Positions 13,769-50,792 of a stretch of 64,000 nt of DNA are shown piece by piece. The notes under the pieces were generated by a model, which was not told the origin of the DNA, did not search any database, and was given only the letters and a program-made list of their open reading frames with translations. Within the stretch, counting starts at the first letter, position 1. Every line of letters begins with the position of its first letter. Made by a program: the position numbers and the translations under genes. Origin of the DNA: Aureococcus anophagefferens (taxonomy: Eukaryota > Sar > Pelagophyceae > Pelagomonadales > Pelagomonadaceae); contig NW_008705561.1 in the NCBI RefSeq assembly GCF_000186865.1, forward strand, positions 1,771,976 through 1,835,975. The letters are read 5' to 3'.

Positions 13769-15576
13769 CTACCGCGGCGCGTCGCGCGGCGTGCGCAGGA
13801 TCGCGGGGATCTTGCTGCCGCGGATGCGCGTCTCCTCCGGCGGCGCGGCCCCGGGGCGGCCCAGGACGGGGGGCTCCCGGGGCGTGTTCGGCCCGCGCGC
13901 GGCCTCCGGGAGCTCCTCGGCGTGGGCGACGCTGTGGCGGCGGTAGAGCTCCGTCGCGCGGCGCAGCGTGGGCGCGTCGGCGCCGGGGCGCTTCGCCGCC
14001 GCGGCCCGCGCGAGCGCGAGGTAGCGGACGCCGAGCGCGAGGTCGCCGACGCGCGCGCGCTTGTAGAGGCCGGCGGCGACGCCCGCGGCGCACTCGACGT
14101 ACTCGGCGTCGTCCGGCGACGCGCCGGAGAGCGCCATCGTCAGGTCCGTGATGGCGCCGTCGAAGTCGTCCCTGTGGAACCGGTCGAGGCCCCGGAACCT
14201 GGGCAGCAAAAGGGTGATTCAACGTCGCTTCAACGTGAGTGTTCCGCGCGCGCGTGATCCGGAAAAAGCATCCACGCTTCGAGAACGCTCCAAGAGATGA
14301 TCGCTCGTCCAAGAATTAGCCGAAACGAGTGGAAAATGGCCGAGATACGAGCCTTTGAAGTTGGGAATTTCGCTCTCTTTTGCTGCCCTGCCCGGAACGC
14401 GCGCCACACGAAGTCGACGTGCGGCTCCCAGTCGTGGAGCTTCAGGATGACGTCCAGCGCCGCAAGCTGGGCCCCGGAGTCGCCCGCGGTCGCCGCGAGG
14501 TACGCCAAACCCTCGTGGCTCTTCGCCGCGACCATGAAGAGCTGGCGCGCGGCCGCCGCCGCGCGCAGCCGCGCGGCGTCGTCGGCGCCGTCCGCGTGCC
14601 GCCGCGCCGCGTCCTTGGCGGCCTGGCCCAGGCTCACGAGCGCGTCGCGGAAGCACGCCGTCGCCTCCGCCTCGTGCGCCGGGCCGTAGCCGACCCAGGT
14701 GAAGCCCCGGAGGAAGTGGAGCTGGTAGGGGAGCACCGCGTCGCCGAACTCGTCCTTGCGCTTCTCGACGACCTGGTTCCCGAAGTGGACGGCCTTGGCC
14801 TCGTCGGGCGACAGCGCCTCGAGGTAGCCGCTCCAGCTCAGCGACTCGGCGACCAAAGCCATGGCCTTGGCCACGAGGCGCGCGTCGTCGTCGTCGAGCA
14901 GCTCGCCCTCGTCGCGCGCGGCGTCCAGCGCGCGGATCGCGTCCGCGCGCGTCGCGGCCGCGAGCGCCTGGCGGTGCGCGAGCACGCTCCGCGTCGGCGG
15001 CGGCCGACGCGCCGCCGGCGGCGCGTCCGGGAAGAAGCGCGTCCGCAGGAGCCTGCGCGCCGACGCCCAGTGCTTCGGGTACCAATACTGCGACGCGAAC
15101 TCCGCCGACATCTCGGGCGTCCAGACGGGCTGCGCGACGGAGACGCCCGTCGCGTCTTGGTACGCGTCGACGAGCGCTTCGACGATCGTCGTCAGCGTGT
15201 TGAGCCAGTCGACGGCCTCGTCGGAGACGCGCGGCGCCCAGTACGTGAGCGGATCGGCGACGATCGCGAACGCCCGCAGCGCGCCGTCGTAGGGCCGGAA
15301 CGCCAGGGGCTCCGTGCCGTTCTCGCCGTCAACGTCGACGAGCTCGAGCAGCTTGTCCACGTGGAACTCCGGCGGGAACGTCGCGAGCCGCTCGGATGCC
15401 GGCGTCTCGGCGAGCGGCACGCCGCAGTCGCGGAGGTACTCGCTCCGCTGCTTGACGAGCAGCCGCCGCCACCAATTGCTAAAGTCCGTGCAGCGCTGCA
15501 CGAAGAACAACTGCAGGTAGACCTTGCGATTCTCGATGTCGTCGGTGTTGATCGTTCGCTCGAGAATGGACGCCAT
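13769..15576 (-). CDS. Helical-repeat (TPR-like) protein split by an introner element
   Basis: Exon 1 is 15576-14399 and exon 2 is 14198-13769; 535 aa. Removing the 200-nt introner joins WRAFR to GLDRFHRDDF in frame. The protein is helical throughout; the C-terminal half has repeated A/L-rich pairs of helices (for example AEATACFRDALVSLGQAAKD, and DDFDGAITDLTMALSGAS) that look like degenerate TPRs. The N-terminal half (ENRKVYLQLFFVQRC, FASQYWYPKHW) is conserved-looking but of no family I recognise. The C-terminus is Pro/Arg-rich. It converges on the EF-hand/TBCC gene with 24 nt between stops. Confidence 0.65.
14199..14398 (-). mobile_element. Introner element, family A, acting as an intron
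   Basis: 200-nt intron in the gene at 13769-15576. Flanking duplication GTTCCGGG on the transcribed strand; the first copy supplies the GT donor. The element ends CTTTTGCTGCCCAG, whose last AG is the acceptor; the matching start CAGCAAAAG is slightly shortened. It is closely similar along its length to 25894-26098. Splicing restores the uninterrupted frame. Confidence 0.9.
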
Positions 15577-23976: not shown

Positions 23977-26605
23977 ATGGCTCCACCGGCGCCCGGGGCC
24001 ATCGAGGACTCGAGCCCGCTGCTGCGGCCCGAGGCGGCCGTCGCGCCGCCCGCGCCCGCCTTCCAGCGCCACTGGCGCAAGGCCGTCGCCCTCGGCCTCG
24101 TGCTCGGCGCCGCCGTCGTCGTCCTCGGCGTCGTCCTCGCCGTGGACGCGCGGGACGCGTCGTCGTCGTCCGACGACGACGCTGCTTCGGATTTATCTCT
24201 ATCGTTTGAGACGGAGGGCTACGGGACCGTGCGTTCCAACGACGAGGGCATCTACCCGTGGACCGTCGTCGAGCCGTTTCGCCGGACGATCCTGACGGCC
24301 GTGCTCGGCGAGCGGCTCGAGAACTTGACGCGCGCCGACGTCAACGGCCCGGCCGCGGGCGCGGGCATCGCGGAGACGCGCTGGACGATCACGAAGCACG
24401 CCGACGGCGGCTCGAAGCGGTCCGGCGCGGGCGAGGGCGAGAAGCCCGAACTCGCGGGCGCCTCCATCGCCTACGAGTTCGGCGTGCCCGGCGCGTCCTA
24501 CGTCGTTTCGGCGACGGTGCGACGAAAAAGGACCCGCGAGCTCCTCGCGTCCGCGTCGGAGGTCGTCCGGTGCAAGTACGTGAAGCGCGAGATTCGCGCT
24601 CTCTCGGAGAGCGACCGCGCGGCGCTCTTCGACGCCTACAACGCCCTCTACCGGAACCGCGACGAGGCCGCGGGTGTGAAGCGCTACGGTCCGGACTTCC
24701 GTTCGGCGCGCTACTTCGTGACGAAGCACATGGACAGGATGACGAAGCTCGGCTGCTCGGCCTGGCACTCGAGCGACGTCTTCCTCACGTCCCACCTGGC
24801 CTTCAACCTCGAATTCGACCGGGCGCTGCAGGCCGTGAATCGGACGCTCGTGAACAGTTACTGGGACTACACGAAGGACGACAGCCGGTACGGCGAGTCC
24901 TGGTACGCCGAGTCGCCGCTGTTCACCGACGACTTTTTCGGGGCGGACCCGGACGCGGACGCGGACGCGCCGACGAAGGGCGACGGGGAGGCGCACGTCG
25001 TCGCGACGGGCCCCTTCGCGTACACGCCCGTGTGGACCGGCGGCGAGGGCGCGCCGGAGCACAACGCCTTCTACAAGCTCTCGGACGCGAACAACTACAA
25101 TCCGTCGCCCTGGCTCCAGCGGTCCTCGCGGATCTCGGGCCTCGAGACGAAGGTGCGGCTCCCGTCGTGCACGCTCGTCCGCGGCACGCTCGCGGCGCCG
25201 ACGCTCACGTGGCTCCACATGATGGTCGAGGACTACTTCCACGGCGAGCTCCACTCGGCGATCGGCGGCGCGTGGGGCTCGACGCTGGACCTCGGCTGCG
25301 TCGTCGACGAGCTCCGTCGGTCCTGCGAGAAGGAAATTCACCACAACGAAACGACGGACGGGAAGTACTACTCGTCCTGCGAGACGGTGAAGTACGTCGA
25401 AGACTTCGCCGTGAACATCAACACGTTCTCGCGGGCCGCGTTCTTCGTCGCGCACCAGGGCGATCAAGGCGCGACCAGCACGGAGGACTGGTACAACTGC
25501 CCGACGGCCGCCGAGTGCGACAACCGGACGGCGACCGGCGGCGGCGCCGCGGACTGCGCGTGCTCGTCGCCGATGATCCGCGCCGAGGCGGGGAACACGT
25601 CCGTGGCCATGGCCAAGGACTTCCTCGACGAGATCGCCGTCGCGACGTCGCTCTCGTCCCACGCGGGCACGGACATCGTCCACGACGTCGACGACGACGA
25701 CGTGATCGAGCTCGTGGACGACCCGCTGCACAACGCGACGCTGAACGTGTCCGTGGGCCAGGAGAACTTTCTCCACGTGACCGACGACGACGCGAACACG
25801 CTCTGGGTCCTGATGGCCGACTGGCTCGCGGCGCCGCCGCGCTTCGGCCCCATGGCCGCGACGTTGGCCGCGCCGAACGACCCGATCTTCTGGGTCATGC
25901 ACAGGGCAGGAAAAGAGAGCGAAATTCCCAACTTCAAAGGCTCCGATCTCGGCCGGTTTGGTTTCCACTCGTTTCGGCTGATTTTTGGACGAGCGATCAT
26001 CTCTCGGAACGGTCTCGAAGCATGGATGCTTTTTCCGGAACGCGCGCGCGCGAAACACTCACGTTGAAGCGACGTTGAATCACCCTTTTCCTGCCCAGGT
26101 CATGCACAACACGTGGGAGCGCATGTACCACAAGAAGTTCCTCACGCCGTCCCTGGCGGAGAACTTCCTCTGGGCGTGGACGACGACGGACACGTGCTGG
26201 TCCTTCGCCCTGGAGTCCGTGCTGCCCTTCTCGGACTTGCTGGACGAGCAGCGGACGGGGCGGAAGTTCGACGGGCCGCGGAGGAACGGCACGACGGACT
26301 ACACGAACCAGCAGCTGCTGGACCTCTTCAACCCCGCGAACCCGGACCTGCCGTACGTCTACGACTCGCTGTCGTGGGACCACTGCGACGGGTCGGAGAA
26401 CGCGACGTCGACGGCCGAGGCCTTCGACCACGAGGTCCGCGTCGCCTACGAGGACGCGGTCGGCCGCCAGCCGGAGACGGCGCCGGGCGCCTGGCCCTGG
26501 GCCGCGACCGACGACGCGCTCGACGAGGACACGCGCCGCGTCCTGCGCCGCGGGTCCATCTACGGGCGGTTGTGGGCGACGATCGACGCGGCGCGCCGAC
26601 GCTAA
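23977..26605 (+). CDS. Tyrosinase-family copper oxidase, type II membrane protein, two exons
   Basis: Exons 23977-25893 and 26099-26605; 807 aa. The in-frame codon at 23962 is GTG, so the ATG at 23977 is used. A transmembrane segment (KAVALGLVLGAAVVVLGVVL) lies near residues 30-50, leaving the enzyme lumenal or extracellular. CuA-like: SAWHSSDVFLTSHLAFNLEFDRAL followed by SYWDYTKD. CuB-like: HGELHSAIGG, then NDPIFWVMHNTWERMYHK, which is split by the introner right before VMH. In the last motif the usual HH is MH and the following Asp is Glu, so the copper site may be altered. The family oxidises phenols to quinones. Several N-glycosylation sites occur. Confidence 0.8.
25894..26098 (+). mobile_element. 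Introner element, family A, acting as an intron
   Basis: 205-nt intron flanked by the 8-bp duplication GTCATGCA. Ends are near-perfect inverted repeats: CAGGGCAGGAAAAG at the start and CTTTTCCTGCCCAG at the end. The first duplication copy supplies the GT donor; the element's terminal AG is the acceptor. Removing it restores FWVMHNTW in the tyrosinase. It is highly similar to the copy at 14199-14398, in the same orientation relative to transcription. Confidence 0.95.
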
Positions 26606-26710: not shown

Positions 26711-29501
26711 ATGCCGCCGCCGGTCGTGCCAGGCCTGCGCGTCTGGGCGCCGCTCGTCGCCATCTGCCAGTGCGAGCGCGGCGGCCGGAGCACGACGTCG
26801 ATCTACGCGCTCACGTTGATCCTCTACGCGGCCCTCGACGGGTCGGGCCTCTGCGACGAGGCGGCGACGGCGAGTTTGGTCGGCTGCGTCGCGGCGACGA
26901 TCTCGCTGCTCGTGCGCATCGCGCAGGAGTGCGGCGCGGGCATGGCCACCGCGAGCCTCCTCGAGCTCGTGCTCCAGGCCTTCGGCGCGGCGGGCGTCTG
27001 CACGTGCTTGTGGTCCTTGGCGCTCGAGGCGTCGGCGCCGCGCGACGCCTTCATCAACCGGCGCGTCGCCCTCGCCGCGCTCACGGGCGCGGGCCCCGCG
27101 CTGCTCGTGGCGACGGCGACGCGGCTCGCGGGCGTCGCGCGCGCGTCCGGCGGCGAGGCGCGGCTCCTGGCGCTCGCCGGCGGCCTCGCGCTCTGGAGCG
27201 TCGGCGCGCTCGAGGCGACGCCGGCGCGCCGCGCGCCGGGCGCGCCGGAGCGGCTCAAGGAGCTCCGGGAGACGCGGCGGCTCCGCGCGAAGCCGCGCGC
27301 GCGAAACGTCGACGCGGGCTGCCTCGAGCCCCGGGTCGTCGGCGAGGGCGCCGTCGACGCCAAGTTCGGCGTGTCGCGCAACGCCCTCGCGGCGACGCCG
27401 GCGCTCTGCTGCTGCTATTTGATCTTTGCCGTCGCGTCGCCGCCGCTGGTCGCGCTGGGCTCCTTCGTCGGCCCGTTGTCGCCCGCGGACGCGCTCGCCG
27501 AGGGCGTCCTGCTCGCCGCGACGCCCGTGGTCGTCGCCCTCGGCCTCTCGCGCGCCGCGGGCAACGGCGCGGGCCCGCCCTGGTGGCTCGGGCCCGCCTG
27601 GGAGCGGGCCTACGAGCGCCTCGCGGCCGACCGCGGCGGTTTCGCGTTGCGCGCCGCGCTCGCGGCCGCGGCCGTCGCGGCGGAGCACCGGCTCCGCAAC
27701 GCGCTCGAGGCGCCGCCGGCGACGGCGGCGACCTTCGCCGCGGGCGCCGCGGCGGCGGCCTGCGCCTGCGCGGCGGCCGCGCTCGCGACGGCCGCGCGGC
27801 GGACCGACGACGACTCGCCGGGCCCGCTCGCCGCGCCGCTCTGCTTCGCCGGCCTCGGCGCGGTATTCGTCGGCGCCGCGCCGATTTTTCTCGCGCTCGG
27901 CGTCGTCGAAGTCGCCGGCGGCGCGAGGTTCCATCGCGCGGTCGACGCGACCGGGACCGCGGCCGCGGCGGCGTTTCTGGCCGTCGCGTCTCGCGCGGCG
28001 GGGCCCGCGCCGGCCCTCGCCGTCGCGGCGCCGCTCCTCCTCGGCGCGGCGACGGCGGGCGGCCCGCCCTGGCGCACGCAGTGGTGCGCCGTCGCCGCCG
28101 GGGTCGGCGCGACGTGGGCGCGTGTCGCGTCCGCGTCGCCGGTCTTCTCCGGCGCGACGGTCGCCGGCCAGGTCGCGGCCGTCGTCTACGACTGGCGGCG
28201 CCCGGAGACGCGCGCGTTCCTGGGCCCGACGGCGGCGCTGCTCGTCGCCGCGGCGCTCGGCGACGGCGTCGCCGCGGCGGCCGCGGACTTTTCGCGCGGC
28301 CCGGCGCTCGGCGCGGTCGCGGCGCTGCTGGTCGCGCCCGCGTCGCTGCTCGACGACGGCTCCGAGGCGAAGGCGCTCCTCGGCACCTACCTCGGCGACG
28401 CCGTCGCGCCCAAGGGCCGCGGGGAGAAGCGGTCCGCGGTCGCGCTCGCGCTTTCCGGCGGCGCGCTGCTCGTCTTCGCGCCGACGCAGCCCCTCTTCCG
28501 GAGCCTGTGCCTCCNNNNNNNNNNNNNNNNNNNNNNNNNNNNNNNNNNNNNNNNNNNNNNNNNNNNNNNNNNNNNNNNNNNNNNNNNNNNNNNNNNNNNN
28601 NNNNNNNNNNNNNNNNNNNNNNNNNNNNNNNNNNNNNNNNNNNNNNNNNNNNNNNNNNNNNNNNNNNNNNNNNNNNNNNNNNNNNNNNNNNNNNNNNNNN
28701 NNNNNNNNNNNNNNNNNNNNNNNNNNNNNNNNNNNNNNNNNNNNNNNNNNNNNNNNNNNNNNNNNNNNNNNNNNNNNNNNNNNNNNNNNNNNNNNNNNNN
28801 NNNNNNNNNNNNNNNNNNNNNNNNNNNNNNNNNNNNNNNNNNNNNNNNNNNNNNNNNNNNNNNNNNNNNNNNNNNNNNNNNNNNNNNNNNNNNNNNNNNN
28901 NNNNNNNNNNNNNNNNNNNNNNNNNNNNNNNNNNNNNNNNNNNNNNNNNNNNNNNNNNNNNNNNNNNNNNNNNNNNNNNNNNNNNNNNNNNNNNNNNNNN
29001 NNNNNNNNNNNNNNCGGCGCCGCGGCCGCGTTGGCCGCGCAGCTCGCCGCGGCGCCCAACGCGCCGAAGCTCCTCGCGCGCTTCGTCGTCCTCGCCGCGG
29101 CGCCCGTGCTGTCGCTGCTCCAGCGCGACGACGACCTCGACGCCGCGCTGCCCGCGGCGGGCGCCGGGCCGGGCGCCGCCGCGCGCCTCGCCGACGACGC
29201 GCGGGACGCCGCGCCCGTGCTCGCGCCGGCGCTCTGGCTCGTCGCGGGGGCGCTGGCGACGGCGTCGACGGCCCTCGAGGTCGTCGCCGTGCTCCTGGCC
29301 CTCGCGGGGCCCGCGGCGCTCGCGCGCGCGGCGACGGCGAGGCGCGCCGTCGACCTCGCGCTCGTCGCCTGGCCCCTCACGCTCGCGCCCTTCGCCCTCT
29401 ACGACTGCAAACTCGACGCCAAGCTCCTCGGCGCCGTCGGCTGCGCCGGGGCCACGCTCATCACCCTCCTCTTCGAGGACCCGAAGGAGGAGTGGGAGTA
29501 G
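26711..29501 (+). CDS. Multi-span membrane protein of unknown function, interrupted by an assembly gap
   Basis: The first ATG with coding character is at 26711. Many hydrophobic Ala/Leu/Val/Gly helices (ten or more before the gap) alternate with short Arg-rich loops. A basic loop APERLKELRETRRLRAKPRAR lies near residues 175-200. After the gap (28515-29014) the protein continues in a different nominal frame with more membrane helices (LAPALWLVAGALATAST, VAWPLTLAPFALYDC) and ends FEDPKEEWE. The frame difference means only that the 500-N spacer is not the true length. No transporter signature recognised. Confidence 0.6.
28515..29014. other. Assembly gap of exactly 500 N
   Basis: A run of 500 undetermined bases inside the membrane-protein gene; the round number is a scaffolding placeholder. 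The flanks are extremely GC-rich, a likely reason for failed sequencing. Confidence 0.99.
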
Positions 29502-38932: not shown

Positions 38933-39923
38933 CTAGGTCGCGAAGTGGAACTTGTTGTAGGACTTCCGCCGCCGGTAGACGAAGACGTCGCTGCCGCCGC
39001 CCGCCGGGTTCCAGGTCATCCGCGCGCGCCGCGGCGCGCCGTCCTGGACGAAGCGCTTCGCCGGCACGCTCGACAGCGCCGCGAAGCTCTCGACGTTGGA
39101 CGCGTCGAGGGCCGCGCCGAGCCTCGCGAGCATGGGGTCGTCGAAGAGGAGCGACGCGCAGTAGGCGTGCGAGACGCGGTCGAGGCGCGGCAGCTCCGCG
39201 AGGATGTCGCCCTCGCGCAGATCAACCTTCTTCAGCGCGGCGACGTCGACGTCGTCGTCGAAGCTCAGGCGCTTGAGCGCCTCGACGGCGCGGTCGTGGC
39301 GCGACCGCGACAGCTCGACGCCGACGCTGCCGGCGACCTGTGTGGAAATCAAATCTTCAACCCGACTTCAATGTGCGCGTAATCGAACGGTTCGGACCAG
39401 ATTCTTTCACCGTGCTTCGAGAACTTGACGAGCGCAATCGATTCGTCCAAAAATCAGCCGAATCGACTTCGATGTGACCGAGCTAGAGAGTTCTGAAGTT
39501 TGGTGGGGACCCCCCAAACCAGTGGTTGATTTCCACGCTGCCGGCGACGGCGCACTCGACGGCGCAGTGCGCGACCATCTGGCCGACGCCCGAGCCCAGG
39601 TCCGCGAAGACCGCGCCGGCCGGCGCGTCGTAGAGGCCCAGCGCGTCGAAGACGCAGCGCGCGCCGTCGAAGGTCACCTCGCCGTAGGTGTTGCCGTTTT
39701 CCCCCGAGACCGCGTCGATCGCCGCGTCCTCCTCGGGCGTCGCCGTCGAGAACCCGTCGAGCCCCGTCCAGGCCCGGCGCAGCGCGGCGTCGATCGTCGT
39801 CCGGCGCTGCAGGTCCTCGGGCGTGCGCGGCGCCGGCGGCAGGGCCGGGAGGCCCGGGACCGTCAGGCCCGAGGCGGCCAGCGACGCGGCGGCGACGGCC
39901 GTCGTGATGGCGTCGAGTCTCAT
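38933..39923 (-). CDS. DOT1-like SAM-dependent methyltransferase, two exons
   Basis: Exon 1 is 39923-39549 and exon 2 is 39337-38933; 259 aa. An in-frame ATG at 39962 would add 13 residues. The N-terminus (ITTAVAAASLAASGLTVPG) could be a targeting peptide. Catalytic motifs are YGEVTFDGARCVFDALGLY, motif I VFADLGSGVGQ, then SVGVELSRSRHDRA, produced only after the introner is removed. This is the DOT1/KMT4-like fold that methylates histone H3 Lys79 in animals and fungi; short algal relatives may have other targets. The C-terminus VYRRRKSYNKFHF is basic. Confidence 0.7.
39338..39548 (-). mobile_element. Introner element, family B, acting as an intron (antisense orientation)
   Basis: 211-nt intron of the DOT1-like gene. 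On the transcribed strand the 8-bp duplication is GTCGCCGG; the first copy is the donor and the element tip CCACACAG is the acceptor. Left tip CAGCGTGGAAATC, right tip GATTTCCACACAG. On the plus strand its body has the same orientation as the copies at 41121 and 49607, although this host gene is on the minus strand. Confidence 0.95.
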
Positions 39924-39962
39924 GGTGGCGATGGCGAGATGGGTCACGGCCTCCGGGCGCAT

Positions 39963-40292
39963 GCGAGAGAGGGTGCTAGAGGGAGCGCTAGAGGGGGCGG
40001 CTAGCAGCAGACACGAGTACTGCAAGCCATCGCAGTGGCAAATCTGCGGCAATCGAGCTGCATCGCAAACCTCGGCCGGCATCCGACTCGCTTGTGGACG
40101 CCGGCGTCTGCCCAGGCTGCGGCGCGAGGACAACTCACCTTGCGTTGTCGAGGGCAAGCGCCACCGCGCTTGCGCGTGGAACGAGGCCGAGCCGCGAGCT
40201 CGGCGCAGATCGAGCGGGCGTGATCGCGGCGCGCGCCTAGAACGACGGCCGGCTCGCCGTTCGCTCCCTAGAAACAGTTCCAGAGAGTTATC
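39963..40292. other. Divergent intergenic region
   Basis: 330 nt between the methyltransferase and the PH/appendage gene. It contains GCTAGAGGG-type short repeats near 39975-40005 and no clear core-promoter element or gene. Confidence 0.4.
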
Positions 40293-43200
40293 ATGGGGGT
40301 GAACCAGAGCAGCGCCCAGAAGGACGACAAGCTCGCGGCGGCGAACATCGGCCACTTCGACCACAGCTACGAGGCGCTGCTCATCACGGCGAGCCCCGGC
40401 ATGGTCCCCGAGCCGCTCGCGGGCGCGCCGCCGCGGCCTCCCGCGATCGCGAAGAAGCTCGGCGACGAGGGCCGCTTCGTCGAGCTCGTCATGAAGTTCG
40501 ACACGGTGCAGCTCTGCGAGGTGACGAACGTCGCGTCGGGCGAGAAGCGCACGCTCTGCTTGATCCCCTACGGGAGCCTCAAGTCGCTCGAGTGGGACCA
40601 CTCGTGCTCGTCCGTGAAGATGGTCACGGGCGGCCGCGAGGCGGGCCTCGAGACCTTCGCGGTCGTCAAGGTGCACAACTCGCTCGAGCTCGAGAACGAG
40701 GCGAAGCTGCGGCTCCGCGGCCTGTCGCGCGCGTCGAACGCCGCGCCGGTGTCGATCACGTTCGGCTACTGCGGCGTCTACGCGGGCCCGACGAAGCCCA
40801 AGCCCTTCCAGCGCAAGCGCGCGAACCTGAGCACGCGCGAGCAGGGCAAGCTGCCGCCCCTGGCGCTCATGCGCGACCTCGCCCTCGCGCGGCACCTGGG
40901 CTCGGGCGCGCCGACGCGCGCGAACGGCTCGAAGCGCCTCGTGCACGCGTTGGAGCACATCCACAAGGGCGGCAACACCTTCGCGGTCATGCACGCCTAC
41001 GAGCGCGGCGTCGCGACGGCGGCCGGCGCCAACGGCATGAACGCCGTCGAGTCGAAGCTCGCGCTGACCGCGGGCGACTTCGGGCAGCCGGGCATCGCGT
41101 ACGTCGAGGGCCAGAAGATGGTCTTGGACTGTGTGCAAATCAAATCTTCAACCCGACTTCAATGTGCGCGTATTCGAATGTGTTGACACGAGCACTTCCG
41201 CCGTGCTTCGAGAACTCGACGAGAGCAATCGATCCGTCCAAGAATCAGCCGAATCGACTTCGATTTGACCGAGCTAGAGAATTCTCAAGTTTGGTCAGGA
41301 CCACCCAAACCAGTGGTTGGTTTCCACACAGGTCTTGGAGCACGCGTGGGCCGACGTGCTGGACTACGAGGTCCACGACAAGGTGCACCAGGGCGAGCAC
41401 AGCAGCGGCATCGAGATCACCTTCGCGGACAAGGCCGGCGGCGCCGCCCACAAGTGGTTCTTCGTGGTCCTGGACGTGTTGCAGCTCGGCGACGCCGTCG
41501 AGCACTTCTGGAACCGGCGCGAGGTCGCCGCGGGGCGGCCGCCGCGGCCCCGGTCGACGCACGGCCGCGCCGTGGCCAAGGTGACGACGCTCCACGGCGA
41601 GATCGACGCGCCGAAGCGGCCGCGCGGCGATCTGGACGTCGTCGACGAGCACGGCACCTTGGTCCGGTCTTCCGGGACCGCGCACGGCGGCGTCGCGAAG
41701 CGCAAGTCGACCCTCTTGGGGTCCATCAAGGGCAAGAAGGCCAACGGCTGGGCGCTGAACGACCAGACGAACAAGTACTGGGATTCCGTGGTCGTGCACC
41801 AGGGCTGGCTTTTGAAGAAGGGCGGCCTCGCGAAGTCGTGGATCAAGCGCTACGCCGTGTTGTACGAGACGGCCATGGGCCACTTCCTCTGCTACTACGC
41901 CGACTTCGCCAAGGCGCCGTTGTTTCACCCGGAGGAGCGCGAGCGGCGCATCATCGACCTCTGCAAGACGACGTTCGTGCGGCCCGTGAGCAGCCGGGCC
42001 GAGGCGCCGCCGAATTCGTTCGACATCTGCACGATCGAGCGCGAGTGGACGCTGTCCGCGGACAGCAAGCAGTCCATGCAGACCTGGCTCCAGGTCATCA
42101 CGCGCTGCATCGACGAGGACGTGGCCATCGTGCCCGACGACGAGCTCGTCTTCCACGTGAAGCCGCGCGTCGACCCTTCCATGCAGCTCGTCAAGAACGA
42201 GTACAGCGCGGCGCTCAAGGTGTCCGCGTCGGGCGTGTCCGTCTGCGCCGTGGCGTCCAACGAGGAGCTCGTGGAGCGCTTCTTCTGGTGCTACACGGAC
42301 TTCTTCAAGTGGTCCATCCTCCACCACGGCGGCAAGACGGGCCTCCAGGTGTCCGTCTTCACCTCCGCGGACTTCAACGTCAAGGACCGCCACGAGTTCC
42401 TCTTCCGCACGCGCGACGCCGTGAAGCTGGCGACGGCCATCGAGTTCTACATCGAGAAGTTCATGTCGGCCATGCACTTGTACCTCGAGGGCGCGCCGCC
42501 GGACGCGGCGCCGGCCGCGGGCTCGGGCGGCATGGCGATGGCGACGGCGGAGATGGCGAGCGACAATTTGCTAGGCGACGACGCGTTGCTCCTCGGCGGC
42601 GACGACGACGACGACTCCCAAAAGGCCGCGGCGCCGCCGCCGCCGCCGCCGCCGGGCCAGGACGTGCAGTCGATCCTCGACCTCTTCACGACGCCGACGG
42701 TCGCGGGCCCCGCGCACGCGGCCGACGACCCCTTCAACCCGGCGCCGCCGCCGGCGCCGCCGCCGGCGCCGCCGGGCGCCGACCTGCCGGACCCGATGCG
42801 GGACCCCTTCGCGGCCTTCGACGGCGGCGAGAATTTGGCGGACGACGTCTCCGCGCTGTCGGTCGACACGGGCCACGCGGCGCCCGTGACCATGGACCAC
42901 GCGGACGACATGGTCCACGCGTCGGCCTTGTTCGAGGCGCTGGCCGTGGGCGCCGAGGCGGGCGCGGGCGCGGCCAAGGGGCTGCTCTTCGAGAACGACC
43001 ACGTCCGCGTCGCCGTCGAGCAGGACTACCGCGGCTCCGAGGGCCGCGTCACCGTCCGCGTCGCCAACAAGGCGTCCGCGGTTTTAGCGGGCCTCGCGAC
43101 GGAGCTCGACGTCGGCGCGACGGGCCTGCGCCACGAGTTCGGCCCGCTGAGCGGCACGACGCTCGCGCCGAACGAGGCCGCCGCGCAGCTGCTCATGCTC

Positions 43201-43680
43201 GAGTGCATGCGGCCCTACGACGCCGCGCCGACGCTCGTCGTCAAGTTCGGCGTGGCCAACGTGCCCTACGAGCTGCGGCTCGCGCTGCCCGCGCTCTTCA
43301 CCAAGTTCCTCGAGGCCGTGCCCCTGTCGCCCAACGTCTTCGTCCAGCGCTGGGCGACGCTCGGCGCGCCGGGCCTCGAGCACATGGTCACCTTCGCGGC
43401 GCGGCGCGGCGCGGCGACGAAGGACGCGGCGCTGCCGCGGCTCCGCGACCTCGCGCAGATCGCCGTCGTCGAGGGCGTCGACGACGGCGGCGGCACGATC
43501 CTCTCGGGGGCGACCGCGCTCCGCACGGGCACGCTCAACGCCGGCGGCGAGAAGATCAGCGTCGGCTGCCTCGTGCGCCTCGAGATGAACGAGGCCGCCG
43601 CGGCCTTCCGCCTCACCGTGCGCACGGCCGTGCCCCACGTGTCCACGGCGCTCTCCGACGCCATCCAGAATTTACTCTAG
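40293..43680 (+). CDS. PH-domain protein with a C-terminal AP-2 alpha-appendage (ear) domain, two exons
   Basis: Exons 40293-41120 and 41332-43680; 1058 aa. Residues about 1-275 contain a PH-like beta-rich segment (FVELVMKFDTVQLCEV, LCLIPYGSLKSLEW). A clear PH domain spans about 428-535 (HQGWLLKKGGLAKSWIKRYAVL to SMQTWLQVI), followed by a second PH/PTB-like region. A Pro-rich linker (about 715-790) holds endocytic motifs: ILDLF, DDPFNP and RDPFAAF. From about 825 an entire alpha-adaptin appendage follows: LLFENDHVRVAVEQDYRG (sandwich) and platform residues PNVFVQRWATL and VGCLVRLEMNE. In AP-2 this ear recruits proteins through DPF/FxDxF motifs, and here both are in one chain. A role in clathrin-mediated trafficking at phosphoinositide membranes is inferred. 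Confidence 0.8.
41121..41331 (+). mobile_element. Introner element, family B, acting as an intron
   Basis: 211-nt intron in the PH/appendage gene. 8-bp duplication GTCTTGGA at both ends; the first supplies GT, and the element's tip TTTCCACACAG supplies AG. Left tip CTGTGTGCAAATCAA. Exact removal joins QKM to VLEHAW in phase 0. Confidence 0.97.
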
Positions 43681-43860
43681 GGCCGCCCCCGCGGCCCGCG
43701 CCGGCACCACCTACTGTCCGCCCCCCCCCCCGGTCCCCCCTCCACGCCCCCTCCCGACCCGGTTGGCGCGTCTAAACCCGCCGACACCAGGGGCTTGCGC
43801 GCGGATTCCATTCCGGACACGACGGTGCCCCTGGTCTACTCCGCTTCGGCCCCCTCCTCC

Positions 43861-45162
43861 CTAGCGGCGAGCGAAGACGCCGGGGCGGTTCTCCCCCTGC
43901 GCGCCTTCGCCGTATTGCTCGGCGGACACGGACACGACGCTGCCCGTGAGGACCTGGCCCTGGGCCATGACGGGCGCGCCGAGGAGCACCTGGCCCTGCG
44001 GCTGCGCGATGCCGACGACCATGGCGACGGGCTGGACGGGCTGCTGCTCGAACTTGGGCGGCGGGACCATCTCCTGCTGGGGCGCCCGCGCCGGCGTCGG
44101 CGCGACCGTGCGGCTCGGCACGCTCGCGAAGCCGCCGGCGCTCCGCGCGTCCGCCTGGCGCGCGGTCTCCGCGAGCAGGACCGCGAAGACCGCGGCGAGG
44201 AAGAGGAACGCCGCCCCGGCGACGAGCATGGCGTGCGCGTAGCCAAAGTCGACGGACCGGAAGGGGTACGCCTCCTCGACGACGTCCTTGAAGTTGGCCC
44301 AGTTCCCGTAGGACAGGACGGCGCCGACGCCGCCCGCGGCGCAGTAGACGGCGACGCCGTAGGCCAGGTTGCAGCTGAGCTCGCCCGAGGCGACGCCGCG
44401 GCCGACGAGGAAGATGAGCGCCCAGTGCGCGAGCATGACGAAGCCGACGCAGATGAGCATGTTCTTCGAGCCCCGGAAGCGGCCGCCGCAGAGCGCCTTG
44501 AGCAGCCGGGCCTGCGCGCGGTTCATGGGGCTGTTCCACCAGCCGTAGAGGTGGGGCGTGTTCTTGAGGCCGTAGCTGTTGCGCGAGTCCGCGTGCTTGG
44601 CGTCGCTCGAGGCGCCGCAGATATTGGTCAGGGGCGTGTGCTGCATCGCCGCCGTGTAGTCGTCGAAGCGCGTCGGCGGCTCGGGCGGCACGACGGCCGA
44701 GAAGACGTGGTCGACCGCGCACCCGAACTTCTTGTCGTTCCCCGTCCCGATGCAGAGCACCTCGAAGCTCCCGAAGCCGATCATGCTGTTCGTGTATTTG
44801 TGGTCCGCGGCCGCGTCGTAGCCCCCGGCCATGTAGGCCGGCAATTGCGCCGTCGCGGACGCCGCGGCGCCCGAGTCCCACTTGCCGACGTAGACGAAGG
44901 ACTTGCTGCTGCCGGCCATGAGCACGATGGCGAAGCCGACGACGGCGCAGACCTCCGCGCAGGCGTGGCAGATGGCGGGGCCCGGCCGCGCCGACCCGCC
45001 GTTCTGCCAGGCGACGGCGTGGAGGACGACGTCGATGAGGACGAAGAGCGGGATGAACACGCAGGCCATGATCAAGGAGACGGCAAAATCCGCCGTCGAC
45101 CCGCCGTTCCCGGCCGCGACCAGGGCGGGGACGAGAACGACCAGCAGCGCGCGGCGCATCAT
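43861..45162 (-). CDS. Membrane protein with about five spans, unknown family
   Basis: 433 aa from the first of two ATGs at 45162; the frame further upstream starts at GTG. Signal peptide or first span MMRRALLVVLVPALVAA, then spans near FAVSLIMACVFIPLFVLIDVVL, CAVVGFAIVLMAG, MLICVGFVMLAHWALIFLVG, LAYGVAVYCAAGGVGAVL and MLVAGAAFLFLAAVFAVLL. The loop between spans three and four has paired cysteines and an RNSYGLKNTPHLYGWWNSP segment. The C-terminus is Pro/Gln-rich (PPPKFEQQPVQPVAM) and probably cytoplasmic. It resembles tetraspan-like surface proteins only in general layout. Confidence 0.6.
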   Translation of the reverse strand: MMRRALLVVLVPALVAAGNGGSTADFAVSLIMACVFIPLFVLIDVVLHAVAWQNGGSARPGPAICHACAEVCAVVGFAIVLMAGSSKSFVYVGKWDSGAAASATAQLPAYMAGGYDAAADHKYTNSMIGFGSFEVLCIGTGNDKKFGCAVDHVFSAVVPPEPPTRFDDYTAAMQHTPLTNICGASSDAKHADSRNSYGLKNTPHLYGWWNSPMNRAQARLLKALCGGRFRGSKNMLICVGFVMLAHWALIFLVGRGVASGELSCNLAYGVAVYCAAGGVGAVLSYGNWANFKDVVEEAYPFRSVDFGYAHAMLVAGAAFLFLAAVFAVLLAETARQADARSAGGFASVPSRTVAPTPARAPQQEMVPPPKFEQQPVQPVAMVVGIAQPQGQVLLGAPVMAQGQVLTGSVVSVSAEQYGEGAQGENRPGVFARR

Positions 45163-45186
45163 CGTCGACGGAGGGCGGTGGGGCAC

Positions 45187-45293
45187 GAACGATGCGTCGG
45201 CGTCGAACAGAGCAGCCCAGCGCTTTTAGAGCACTCCTTATCCAACGCACAATGCTCTTTTGATTGAGGTTTTACTGCTCGAGAGCATTAACG
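45187..45293. promoter_or_regulatory. Divergent promoter, shared ACTCCTTATCCAACG motif
   Basis: A short divergent region. A GCAGCCC element lies at 45212-45218 and ACTCCTTATCCAACG at 45233-45247, about 50 nt before the ATG at 45294. The latter matches the sequence after the TATA box at 19344 in 14 of 15 positions. Confidence 0.4.
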
Positions 45294-48200
45294 ATGGTCG
45301 TGCGCGTGTTCGTAATCGTCGGCATGGTCGCCGTACGCGCCCAGAAGGAGGCGCCGGCCCACGCGGGACCCCCGCTCCTCGCCGAGTGCCTGGCGGATCC
45401 GTCGCGCGCCCAGGCGGGCGTGTCCGGCGCGGGCTGCCCGCCCGCCGACTCGCCGGCGGCCGCGGCCTACCTCGCCTACGTCAACGCGCCCCCGCGGGCG
45501 GCGGCCCCCGCGGCGGCGGACCGGCAGCTCTACGCCTGGGACAACACGGGCCGGTCCTGCCCCATGTTCAGCGACGGCCGCGTCTCCGAGCCGCAGTGGA
45601 ACCTGCAGAACTGCACGAACCACCGGAAGAACAGCTGCTGCCGCCAGGCGGACGTCACGGCGGCCTTCTCCGAGCTCGGGAGCGCGAACCTCATGCTCGA
45701 CGCCGGCGTGGGCTCCGTCTGCACGCAGATCGTGACGGCGCTCATGTGCCACTTTTGCGCCTACGACCAGTCGGACTGGTACGACGCGTCCGCGAGCGCC
45801 TCCTCCTCGAGCGGCGCGCTGGCGTCGGGCCACAAGGCCGTCACGGTCTGCAAGAGCATGTGCGACCGCGTGCACTACCACTGCGCCGGCGCCTTCTACA
45901 ACGGCGTCCTGCTGAGCGACGCGTTCTCCGACGGCACGGAATTCTGCGAGGCGAACAACTTCGAGGTCTACAACGACGGCTCCTACTCGACCGGCGGCCC
46001 CTGTTTCGGCGTGTTCAGCGACCCCTGGGACATCCCCTGGCTCTACAGCGCCCGCCGGCGCCTCGGCGACGGGGACGCGGCGGAACGCGCCGGGGACGCG
46101 CGCCTCGGCGACGGGGACGCGGCCGCGGGCGCCGGGGACGCGCGCCGGCGCCTCGGCGGCGGGGACGACGCGCCGCCCCCGGCCCGGAGCGCCGCCGCCG
46201 CCGCGCGGCCGCGGCTCGCCGCCGCCGCCGCCGCCGCCGCGGCGCTCGGCGGCCGCGGCGGCGTCGCCGCGCTCCTGCTGCTCGGCGCCGGCGCGCGCGC
46301 CGAGGAGGTCCAGCACTGCCCCTACTTCAACAACCGCGCGCCGCGGCCCGAGTGGGGCCTGACGAACTGCACGTGGCACCGGCCCATGAGCTGCTGCGGC
46401 GCCTCCGAGGAGGCGAGCCTCGTCGCGGGCCTCGAGGACTTACACGTCCAGGGCGAGTCGCTCGAGTGCCAGCAGCTCCTCAACTACCTCGTCTGCTGGC
46501 CCTGCCACGGGAACCAGATGGAGTTCTACGACCTCGAGTCGAACCGCCTGTCCGTCTGCGCGTCCTACTGCGACGCCATCTACGCCAACTGCGCGGGCGC
46601 GCGCTTCAAGGGCGCGACGATGGCCGACTACTTCGACTCGGGCGACGACTTCTGCGGCATGCTCCACGCGGACGTCGTCGACGACGCGAACGACGACGGC
46701 GCGTCGTGCCTCCGGCTCTACGACGGCGCCTGCACGGCCCCGGACTGGCGCTTCATGCCCAAGCTCAAGAGCGGCGCGTCGGCCGCGCGGCCGGCGCTCG
46801 CCGCCGCGGCGCTCGCCGCCGCGGCCGCCGCGCTGCTCGCCGCGGGCGCCGGCGGCGCGCCGCGGCGCCGCCGCCGCCGCGGCCCCGCGCGCGTCGCGCT
46901 CGCCGCGCTCGCCGCGCTCGCCGCGCCGGCGCCCGCGGGCGCGAGCGTGACGACGGCCCAGGTCCTGCGCTGGGCCGCGGCCGTCGGCGACGAGCTCAAG
47001 AACGCGTCGCGCGACGTCCTGCTCCGCGACGAGATCCAGGCCGTCTACGACGCCGCGAACTACACCTACACGTCCTACAACGGCACGGCCGAGGCCGAGA
47101 AGCTCGCGGACCGCCTCTACGAGGCCAAGACCTTCGTCGAGGACGTCGTCACGGACTTCAAGGCCGAGCTCAAGGCCGCCTACGGCCGCCGCGACGACGC
47201 CGCGGTCGGCGACGACCTCAAGCCCTGCAAGGGCGCGTGCGAGCCCGACGGCACGGGCGGCGCGGGCTGCGCGTCGACGTGCTACTACGACGTGGACCTC
47301 GCGCTGCCCCCCGACATCGAGTACAGCAACCGCTACAAGCAGAAGGTGTCGCCCTCGAAGTGGTGCGCGAAGATGCCCGACGAGGAGCTCCGGACCCTCG
47401 ACGCGAAGCGGACCATCGCCTGGACCCAGGACGCGACCCTGGAGGCCTGGCTCGAGGCCAAGTGGGCGCACCAGGAGCAGTGGCACTACATCGTCTTCGG
47501 CGCGCCCGACGGCGTCATCCGCCAGTTCCCGGGCTCCGCGCGCCCGACGAACGCCGCGGGCATGCCCATGGACTACGACCCGCGGCTCCGGCCCTGGTAC
47601 CTCGCGCCCACGGGCGGGCCCAAGGACGTGGTCATCGTCATCGACGCGTCCTACTCCATGGACGAGGGGCGGCGGCTGGACCGCGCGAAGCGCATCGCGA
47701 AGTCGCTCCTGCTCACGCTCACGGTCGAGGACTACGTCGGCGTCGTCGAGGCCAAGCAGGGCTACTGGGGCTACTGGAACCAGTGGGAGTGGCGCCAGCC
47801 GACGGAGCTCGGCTGCGTCGACGACGCCATGTTCCCCGCGACGACGTCGGTCCGCGTGGACCTCGGCGGGAAGATCGACGGCATCAAGACCGACGGCGGC
47901 ACGTGCGTCGAGGACGCCATGGCCCTCGCTAGGAGCCTGCTGGACAAGTACCGATCCTTCCGGGGCGGCTGCCAGGAGTACATCATCTACATCGGCGACG
48001 GCGACGACTACGACGCCATGGGATCGACGTCGGGCACCGCGCGCAAGGCTGCCTGCGGCTACTGGGACTGCTGCCCGTGCGGCGACAACTGCTGCTACAC
48101 CTGCTGGATCCCCTGCGACAAGCAGGACTACGAGTACGAGTACAGCCACGCGGCGACCTACGCCGCGGAGCTCCTCGACGACGAGGGCATCAACACGATC

Positions 48201-50792
48201 ACCTACAGCGTCAAGGACGACGAGAAGCGGAACCCGCTCTCGTGCGTCGCCATGGCCGGCGGCGGCTTCCACCAGAGCTACGACGACGCGGCGCACGACG
48301 TCAACACCTTCGCGCTCCTCGCCGAGTGGCTCGACTACCTGCGGCAAAAGTCCGAGGACGAGGGCCAGGAGTGGACGTCGTCCTACATCGACCTCACGGG
48401 CAGCGGCCTCATCGCGAGCCTCTGCGAGAGCGTCTACCTCGACGACGGCTCCTTCCTGGGCGTCGCCATGAGCTCGCTGAGCCTCGAGCAGACGGAGAAG
48501 CTGCTCCTGAACGACATCTGGGGCACGGCCTACGCGTTCATGGTCGACGTCGAGGGCGAGGCCATGATCCACCCGCGGCTCACGCCGCCGTCGCACCTCG
48601 CCGCGTCGCCCCTCTTCCCGGACATCGAGTCGCTCGAGACCTACAACGGCTTCCCGGCCGAGTTCCTCCAGGCGCGCGACGACATGGTCCACTCGCGGGC
48701 CGGCGCGGCGAAGATGACGACGCGCCAGCTCCGGCCGCGCGGCGGCGTGCTCGACGGCGTCATGGTCGTCGAGGACGAGGTCGAGTACTTCTGGGCGCCC
48801 GTGCCGGACAGCGAGTACGTCGTCGGCTACGTGCTCGCGACGCCCGACGACGTCCACTACCGCGTGCCCGTGGAGCCGCCGGCGCACTGGGGCGTGACGA
48901 ACCACATGACGAACTACCTCCACAAGTTGCTGGACTACGAGACGCTCGGCGCGCTCGGCGACGCGACGCTCGCCCAGGCCTTTCTCGATCTGGACGTCCA
49001 GAAGGACGGCGTCTTCGGGGGCATCTCCTACAACGGCATCTGGGTCACGGGCGCGCACTCCGTCGTGACGCTCGCGGAGCGGTCGCTCTGCGCGCCGGAC
49101 GAGTTCACGCAGCTCGATTTAGACGACCTGCTCCTACCGACGGCGCACGGCGACCTCAACGAGGACCGCGACGCGACCGTGGGCTGGCGCGACTGCGACT
49201 CGGGGTCGTTCATGCACGAGCGGGCCTTCGCGGACGTCGAATTGACCTTGGCCATCGAGGAGCCGTGGCTCGCGCGCGACATGTCCGGCGACTACGGCTC
49301 CTTCGCCATCACGGGCATCGGCACGGCGAGCGGCAGCTTCCGCTTCTACCCGGGCTACCAGCTCTACCGCGGCTTCGACCCGACGGTGCGGCCCTGGTAC
49401 TACGCGGCGGTGGCGAACAAGGACGCGCTCGCGATCTCGACGCCCTACACGGCGGCCGCGGGCGAGGGCATCTACGTGACCATCTCCGCGACGATCTTCG
49501 AGGGCGCGCCGGACTGCGCCGAGTCCGCGACCATGGGCCACGACGGCGGCTGCGCGTGCGCCGACGGCTCCGACTGCGAGAGCGGCGTCTGCGCGGCGAC
49601 GGGCACGTGCACGTCCGTGTGGAAATCAAATCTTCAACCCGACTTCAATGTGCGCATATGCGACCGTTTCGACGCGAGGCTTTCTGTTGTGCCTCGAGAA
49701 CTCGATGAGAGCAATCGATTCGTCCAAAAATCAGCCGAATCGACGTCGATTTGACCGAGATAGAGTTCTGAAGTTTGGTGGGGACCCCCCAAACCAGTGG
49801 TTGGAATCCACACAGGTGCACGTCCGTGCGCGTCGAGGCCGTCGCCATGGGCGCGCGCTTCTACGACGCCTTCCACGACCGCATGCACGAGCTCACGGAG
49901 GGCGCGTGCTCCGATGCCGTCGCGACGGATTCCAGCTCGACGGCGCGGCGCTGCTACCTCGTCGACACGGCGGGCTACGCGATCTGGAGCCCCCACTTCG
50001 CCGCGCTGGACATCTACGACACGCGGTCCTTCCAGTCCGTGCCCCTGGCCCGCACGGAGGGCAAGGTCTTCTCCGCGCTCGAGGCGCTCGGCGTCTTCGT
50101 GCGCCACAGCGAGATCCTGTACCAGGGCACGTGCACGAAGACGCCGTCGTACCTCATGGACAGCGTCACGACCAGTGTCGGCGCAGGGGTCCCTACGTAC
50201 GCGCCTCTCCGTAGCCCCTTCCTGATCCTATGGACCCATGACGTATTCGCCTGCGCAGGTCACCGCCGACGGCGCGTTCCCGCCGGCCGAGGAGGTCGAC
50301 GCGCACTACCCGGGCTCGCCGAGCTTGGGCTACTTCCCGCCCTGGGCGAACACGCACGGCTGCGTCCAGGACGTCGTCTACTACGACCTCGACGAGGACG
50401 CGCTCGCGGCGCAGGCCGACGGCGTCGCGTCGGGCTACATCTCCGGCGCGGGCTGCTACGAGGCCGCGTCCTGGCACTTTGCGCGCGCGCCGGGCACGAA
50501 CGCCTACCTCCTCGTCATCGACGACATCGAGGTCGCGACGACGCCCGAGAGCGCGACGTCCTTCGAGTTCGCGTGCTCCGTCGAAAACGGCCTCTACACG
50601 CCGGGCGCCTACCTCCTCGTCAACGGCTCCTGCGGCATTCTCCACGAGGTGCCCGAGCACCCCATCACTTGCCCGGCGAAGACGGACTACCGACCGACCG
50701 TGCCCGAGTGCGAGGACGACGGCGCCGCGCGCGCCGCGGCCTCGACGGCCGCGGCGCTGCTCGCGCTGCTGCTGGTGATGGCGCGCGGCTAG
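45294..50792 (+). CDS. Giant alpha2-delta-like surface protein: two folate-receptor-like Cys domains, VWA, Cache; three exons
   Basis: Exons 45294-49606, 49816-50164 and 50259-50792; 1731 aa. The upstream in-frame codon at 45264 is TTG, so ATG 45294 is used. A signal peptide comes first, then two Cys-rich modules (about 89-246 and 341-485) with the folate-receptor pattern: NCTNHRKNSCC, MCHFCAYDQSDW and VCKSMCDRVHYHC; and NCTWHRPMSCC, CWPCHGNQMEF, VCASYCDAIYANC. A VWA_N-type region (about 552-770, DPRLRPWYLAP) leads to a VWA domain with the MIDAS VIDASYSMDEG (Asp784, Ser786, Ser788), then Cache-like modules. The C-terminus (TAAALLALLLVMARG) suits a GPI or membrane anchor. VWA_N-VWA-Cache with such an end is the plan of animal voltage-gated Ca2+ channel alpha2-delta subunits. 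Which channel it serves here is unknown. Confidence 0.75.
46055..46170 (+). repeat. Coding minisatellite of about 42 bp
   Basis: Two full copies and one partial copy of a GC-rich unit encode RRLGDGDAA-type repeats between the first Cys-rich module and the internal hydrophobic segment of the alpha2-delta-like protein. The units are in frame. Confidence 0.65.
49607..49815 (+). mobile_element. Introner element, family B, acting as an intron
   Basis: 209-nt first intron of the alpha2-delta-like gene. 8-bp duplication GTGCACGT, followed by tip CCGTGTGGAAATC; right tip GGAATCCACACAG. Donor GT comes from the duplication and acceptor AG from the tip. Removal restores GTCTSVRVEAV in frame. Confidence 0.97.
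50165..50258 (+). other. Short conventional intron of the alpha2-delta-like gene
   Basis: 94-nt GT-AG intron (GTCACG donor, CTGCGCAG acceptor) joining YLMDS to VTADGAF in phase 0; the total coding length of all three exons is then divisible by three. Its body shows no introner similarity, but the first bases GTCACGACC resemble the first exon bases after it, GTCACCGCC. Confidence 0.75.

What the first reader, a model, noticed from the sequence alone, without database searches (positions are those of the whole stretch)
39338..49815. Three copies of one introner family (B), each making a perfect intron with GT from the target duplication and AG from the element
The introns at 39338-39548, 41121-41331 and 49607-49815 share nearly the whole of their about 210 nt, including TIRs of the type CTGTGTGGAAATC/GATTTCCACACAG. 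Each is flanked by a distinct 8-bp duplication (GTCGCCGG, GTCTTGGA, GTGCACGT). All three duplications start with GT, and removing one duplication plus the element restores the coding frame. This is intron creation by a non-autonomous DNA transposon, in three different genes within 10.5 kb. Introners of this kind are known in pelagophytes; the specific copies and clustering are what I see here.
Basis: partly seen in the sequence, partly recalled or inferred. Interest (0 to 1): 0.9.

Follow-up and report, generated by a model that had tools for sequence, protein, structure and literature searches.

The report
Intron-making DNA transposons in a pelagophyte
Short mobile DNA elements have landed inside several genes of a marine alga and appear to be spliced out as ready-made introns; this way of making introns is already known, but these copies often seem to use the unusual GC splice start and look like shuffled mosaics of one another.

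Summary
Three ~203-nt TIR elements (84-86% identical) sit in a DOT1-domain gene, a PH/adaptin gene and a VWA/Cache gene; removing the element plus one 8-bp duplication leaves an open frame. They belong to a family of roughly 600-800 copies in a 49-Mb pelagophyte-like genome. In 93 sampled copies whose gene strand was set by codon usage alone, the duplication starts with G on the coding strand in 93 of 93: GC 50, GT 42, GA 1. Insertions occur in both orientations (51/42). The acceptor-end AG is never mutated (0/93, against 19/93 for the same bases at the donor end). Flank frames join in 91 of 91 testable cases. Two of the three direct repeats are longer than 8 bp (14 and 13), because part of the donor-side TIR matches exon sequence. 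The 10.5-kb cluster is not beyond chance. New features: copies are mosaics (little linkage beyond 40 bp), and a second family (847 pattern matches) has different TIRs on a related core. A public relative of one gene carries a second-family insertion about 12 nt away. No RNA data were available. The kind is known (introners).

The parts
39338..39548 (-). B-family introner intron in a DOT1-domain gene; element 39338-39540, duplication copies 39330-39337 and 39541-39548; donor GT, acceptor AG
   Evidence: the DOT1 Pfam match spans the spliced junction
39535..39540 (-). donor-side TIR end identical to the exon sequence that follows the other duplication copy (direct repeat 14 bp)
41121..41331 (+). 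B-family introner intron in a PH / alpha-adaptin-C gene; duplication 41121-41128 and 41332-41339 (GTCTTGGA), element 41129-41331
49607..49815 (+). B-family introner intron in a VWA/Cache-domain gene; duplication 49607-49614 and 49816-49823, element 49615-49815
49615..49619 (+). donor-side TIR end identical to the exon sequence after the second duplication copy (direct repeat 13 bp)
14199..14398 (-). A-family introner intron (TIR CTGGGCAGCAAAAG, 8-bp duplication CCCGGAAC), core related to B
25894..26098 (+). A-family introner intron (8-bp duplication GTCATGCA on the coding strand)
38933..39962 (-). DOT1-domain host gene (spliced model; ends worked out by hand and the start of P0001)
40293..43680 (+). 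PH / alpha-adaptin-C host gene (spliced model; ends worked out by hand)
45264..50155 (+). VWA/Cache host gene, approximate open-frame model, may contain further introns

Best explanation
The three introns are copies of an introner: a ~203-nt non-autonomous cut-and-paste DNA transposon (MITE) with TIRs CTGTGTGGAAATCAA and 8-bp target duplications. Both TIRs, read outward, end in ...TTTCCACACAG, so either orientation supplies a 3' splice site. The 5' splice site is the first two bases of the duplicated target, GT or GC on the coding strand, so splicing removes element plus one duplication and restores the mRNA. Shown here, at sequence level: structure, duplications, strand-specific G at position 1, frame restoration, conserved domains over junctions, AG conserved only at the acceptor end. 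Inferred: splicing in vivo, transposase-driven insertion, the branch-site role of TTGAT in the TIR, and loss by selection of copies without a usable donor.
For: 194 copies with both exact TIRs. 97 of 111 near-full copies have 8-bp duplications with at most 1 mismatch, 84 of them perfect. Coding strand set by codon usage: G first in 93/93; background GT 0.044, GC 0.160. Acceptor-end dinucleotide mutated 0/93, donor-end 19/93, Fisher p=1.4e-6. Flank frames agree with exact removal in 91/91; 0/93 stops within 20 codons of the junction; 90/93 frameshift or stop if retained. A Pfam domain spans the junction in 9 of 10 non-GT copies scanned; I chose these ten for looking conserved from the 32 (of 51 non-GT) with peptides over 150 residues, 30 of which were printed. 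CTP synthase aligns to a solved structure without a gap at a GC-AG junction. DOT1 spans the 39338 junction. Public proteins 98-99% identical carry the joined sequences of genes 1 and 2.
Against: No RNA-seq, so splicing and the GC donors are inferred. No transposase was found, but the hAT and KDZ searches had silent controls. Fourteen copies with 2 or more duplication mismatches and 4 with unresolved strand were dropped before the 93. Copies were picked by having at least one exact TIR and lie on four of 86 contigs, so degenerate copies are under-sampled. For gene 3 the relatives differ by a 5-residue gap a few residues from the junction. One of the ten scanned peptides had no Pfam match.
Confidence: 0.93

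Rival explanations
1. Target-site preference, not splicing, explains the G/GT start: a hAT-like transposase prefers nTnnnnAn (consensus recalled, not from a call) and the introns are incidental.
For: 8-bp duplications fit hAT (recalled); T at position 2 in 42/93 against 0.126 background.
Against: The preference should be palindromic, but A at position 7 is 14/93 against 0.13 background and C at position 8 is 33/93 against 0.375. G1 follows the coding strand although element orientation is 51/42. AG is kept only at the acceptor end.
Confidence: 0.04
2. Copies spread as RNA, by reverse splicing of excised introns followed by reverse transcription.
For: Nearly all sampled copies lie in coding sequence: 92 of 95 flanks score above 5 as coding, against 81% of 3000 random 400-bp pieces of the window.
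Against: 8-bp target duplications, TIRs and both orientations relative to the gene, which reverse splicing is not expected to give.
Confidence: 0.02
3. Old introns of duplicated genes, inherited rather than newly inserted.
For: Copies differ by ~16% at the median, so the family is not one very recent burst.
Against: 84 of 111 duplications are still perfect; the three window hosts are different genes; a public relative has a different introner about 12 nt away.
Confidence: 0.01

Closest known systems
Introner elements of Aureococcus anophagefferens (Huff, Zilberman and Roy 2016, recalled; paper not held)
   Same: Pelagophyte class; about 210-bp introns (PMC9481584, passage); direct repeats and TIRs of constant length (PMC7789003, passage); MITE-like insertion making introns.
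   Different: Sequences could not be compared. PMC7789003 describes the Aureococcus elements as having canonical splicing motifs, while here about half of the donors would be GC. The present genome's named matches are other pelagophytes at 56-61% protein identity for genes 1 and 2. The passages seen do not describe mosaic copies or donor-end replacement.
Introner families surveyed by Gozashti et al. 2022 (PMC9860276, passages read)
   Same: Families that carry the 3' splice site and take the 5' splice site from the duplication (their Fig. 2B type); GC donors 0-50% by family; bias to genes.
   Different: Here GC is 50 of 93 (54%), at the top of their range and not clearly above it; their Aureococcus sp. 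example adds 12 nt to the mRNA, which the strict G1 rule argues against here.
hAT-superfamily MITEs (class features recalled)
   Same: 8-bp duplications; family A donor end CAGGGCAG resembles hAT termini.
   Different: No hAT transposase found (controls silent); B ends are CTG at both sides; no nTnnnnAn palindrome.

Membership tests
Introner (intron-generating transposable element) | Many similar introns in different genes | tested here: met
   About 607 copies with one or both exact TIRs, counting each unpaired end as one copy (arithmetic); 93 of 97 sampled copies resolved as lying in coding sequence
Introner (intron-generating transposable element) | Insertion leaves the mRNA unchanged after splicing | tested here: met
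   Frame joins in 91/91; 0/93 stops; domains span junctions in 9 of 10 chosen. Sequence level only
Introner (intron-generating transposable element) | Spliced in vivo | not testable with these tools
   No RNA reads; public proteins carry the joined sequence but may come from intron-free DNA or from RNA
TIR/TSD (MITE-type) introner | TIRs and constant-length target duplication | tested here: met
   84 perfect and 13 one-mismatch 8-bp duplications of 111; 194 copies with both exact TIRs
TIR/TSD (MITE-type) introner | Presence/absence between close strains | tested here: inconclusive
   P0007 passes the 39338 site without B and enters an A element whose insertion point is about 12 nt on; protein only, and whether its source is DNA or RNA is unknown
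hAT superfamily | hAT transposase in the genome, or an autonomous element with the same TIRs | tested here: inconclusive
   PF05699 and PF14372 gave 0 matches but controls were silent
hAT superfamily | nTnnnnAn target consensus (recalled) | tested here: not met
   T2 42/93 but A7 14/93; splicing selection confounds position 2

The most novel reading that the evidence does not exclude
The introners behave as a recombining pool: copies are shuffled in short (<40 bp) segments, cores flip between ends and acquire different TIRs, and donor-side ends are sometimes rebuilt by repair that uses the other duplication copy as template, leaving an intron with a damaged, probably immobile end. About half of all such introns are GC-AG, so this lineage's spliceosome would accept GC donors routinely.
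Probability: 0.35. Interest if true: 0.65.

Novelty: new member of a known kind. Interest (0 to 1): 0.45.

Why it matters
How introns arise in bulk is a long-standing question. This family gives hundreds of similar natural insertions with a simple rule (G, then T or C, on the coding strand) that RNA-seq can test directly, and a system in which GC donors appear to be as common as GT. The mosaic copies and rebuilt donor ends, if confirmed, would show how introners diversify and become fixed.

Tried and rejected
Autonomous partner: 23 exact TIR ends are followed by C, G or T. The four followed by C or T were fetched; all four match the same element with deletions. The 19 followed by G were not all looked at. 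The 745-bp TIR pair on contig 1 is two separate copies (L059). hAT and KDZ domain searches gave 0 matches with silent controls, so they show nothing. Virus carriage: one core pattern has 0 exact matches in viral contigs (which warns that records near the window's genome may be left out).

A general tendency of altered donor-end bases to match the flank is not significant (23 of 51 positions, 19.2 expected, p=0.16). Only long runs stand out: 4 of 26 altered donor ends have runs of 5 or more, reached in 1 of 20000 shuffles. Two of those four are the window copies that suggested the test. Outside the window, 2 of 23 have runs of 7 or more, p=0.0002, a threshold set after seeing them; runs of 5 or more give p=0.012. 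The acceptor side has 0 of 20.

Clustering as a hotspot was rejected. The species could not be named.

Full report
WHAT IS THERE. The three introns exist at the stated coordinates. The elements are 203, 203 and 201 nt and 84-86% identical. In the direction of their genes they read duplication (donor), element ending in AG, duplication. The exact repeats at donor and acceptor are GTCGCCGGCAGCGT (14), GTCTTGGA (8) and GTGCACGTCCGTG (13). Spliced models give a DOT1-domain protein, a PH plus alpha-adaptin-C protein and a VWA protein with a Cache match below its curated cut-off. The DOT1 match runs through the junction. Retention would give a stop within 21, 21 and 49 codons.

WHERE IT IS FROM. The window lies in a 49.05-Mb, 86-contig genome; the window is 71% GC. 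Named protein relatives are pelagophytes: Chrysophaeum taylorii 57% and Pelagophyceae sp. CCMP2097 56% for gene 2, and an entry labelled with the taxon 'unclassified Pelagophyceae' at 61% for gene 1. Unnamed ENA proteins reach 98-99%, on contigs of 2,675 and 5,807 bases, so they are not this assembly; whether they come from DNA or RNA is not shown. The species was not identified.

GENOME-WIDE. The 13-nt TIR occurs 801 times (408 and 393) with 0 for the reversed control, and 194 copies have both exact ends 160-186 nt apart. Counting each unpaired end as one copy gives 607 copies; a two-end capture estimate that assumes independent ends gives about 827. I fetched copies from the first-listed places, so the sample is from contigs 1-4. 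A profile search of these loci and the window gave 130 hits; after removing 2 duplicates and 17 partial or edge hits, 111 remain. 84 have perfect 8-bp duplications and 13 have one mismatch. The other 14 were set aside; several of these have shifted ends.

STRAND TEST. A codon-usage model trained on long open frames of the window and longer loci assigned the gene strand from flanks with element and one duplication removed, without using splice sites. Of 97 copies 93 were resolved; 1 was ambiguous and 3 scored as non-coding. On the coding strand the duplication begins with G in 93/93: GC 50, GT 42, GA 1. Flank background is GT 0.044 and GC 0.160, so GT is enriched about tenfold and GC about threefold. 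Elements are sense in 51 and antisense in 42. In the whole genome 230 of 801 exact ends are followed by GT and 294 by GC; these counts mix acceptor and donor ends. The terminal dinucleotide that must be AG is intact at the acceptor in 93/93, while the same two bases are altered at the donor end in 19/93. Exactness of the full 13 nt does not differ between the ends (18 against 21 copies with only one end exact, p=0.75).

FRAME AND DOMAIN TEST. In 91 copies both flanks have a clear frame of their own, and in all 91 these frames join after removal of exactly one duplication plus element. No spliced junction has a stop within 20 codons, and 90 of 93 would shift frame or stop if retained. Of ten non-GT copies scanned (nine GC, one GA; chosen by me for looking conserved), nine have a Pfam domain across the junction and one has no match. 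In CTP synthase the GC-AG junction aligns to a solved structure without a gap.

MECHANISM. A 15-nt TIR whose outward reading is TTGATTTCCACACAG supplies a pyrimidine-rich stretch and AG at whichever end lies 3'; the branch-site role of TTGAT is inference. The donor comes from the target. A palindromic target preference is not seen: T at position 2 is enriched, A at position 7 and C at position 8 are not. Selection for splicing therefore explains the rule better than target choice. Sampled copies are almost all in coding sequence (92 of 95 above threshold against 81% of random window pieces), so insertion or retention is also biased to genes; the window was the only background.

NEW DETAILS. 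(a) Mosaics: among 93 copies mean r2 between variable sites is 0.19-0.25 within 20 bp, 0.053 at 20-40 bp and 0.014-0.022 beyond, where 0.013 is expected for independence; the decline with distance was reached in 0 of 5000 permutations. In the 44 copies with both TIRs exact the value beyond 40 bp is 0.051, above 1/n = 0.023, so linkage is low rather than nil there. (b) Donor-end replacement: 4 of 26 altered donor ends, including two in the window, match the exon after the other duplication for 5-9 nt; the limits are in Tried and rejected. In three of the four the match ends in GT or GTG shared with the TIR, which suggests microhomology-guided repair; that is inference. (c) Family A: 847 matches to a strict pattern, TIR CTGGGCAGCAAAAG, 8-bp duplications, a core alignable with B. 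Only 6 rows, 5 places, have CTG at both ends, so unlike B it supplies AG at one end only. (d) P0007, a JGI protein identical to gene 1 over about 145 residues, reads past the B site and ends in a translation of an A element; the two insertion points lie about 12 nt apart if the A duplication is 8 bp. This A insertion is absent from the window. If the source is DNA, B is absent there.

KNOWN OR NEW. Introners with TIRs and duplications are described in pelagophytes and elsewhere (PMC9860276, PMC9481584, PMC7789003: passages only). A 2025 mirusvirus paper reports candidate introners in viruses with no hit to the eukaryotic introner database it used (PMC12768974, passages). The original Aureococcus paper is not held and is recalled. 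GC donors of 0-50% by family are reported. Seven searches (the last with mosaic, gene conversion and recombination) listed no paper whose title or abstract start describes mosaic introner copies or donor-end replacement. Only the top rows are listed, full texts were not read for this, and subscription journals are mostly missing. In PMC9860276 the word 'recombination' does not occur.

Noticed in passing
14199-14398 (-) and 25894-26098 (+): A second introner family (A) with different TIRs and a core related to B; in the copies seen the donor end is mostly CAGGGCAG or CGGGGCAG and the acceptor end CTGCCCAG, with the core in either direction relative to these ends.
   Followed up: partly
P0007 against the 39338 site: A public relative of the DOT1 gene has an A-family insertion about 12 nt from the B site in the window, which suggests recurrent insertion at nearly the same place.
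   Followed up: partly
L033:5699-5847 and flanks: An A-family copy with a 17-bp direct repeat in which the donor-side TIR is replaced by flank sequence, as in B.
   Followed up: no
L097 and L085: Two B copies dropped from the counts (duplication mismatches from small indels) also show long direct repeats running into the donor-side end.
   Followed up: no
L100:201-270: A 70-bp B deletion derivative with an apparently intact 8-bp duplication, which would be a 78-nt intron.
   Followed up: no
B element positions about 165-186: The right-hand variable block takes several quite different sequences, many of them locally palindromic.
   Followed up: no
28515-29014: A 500-N run (assembly gap or withheld stretch).
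   Followed up: no
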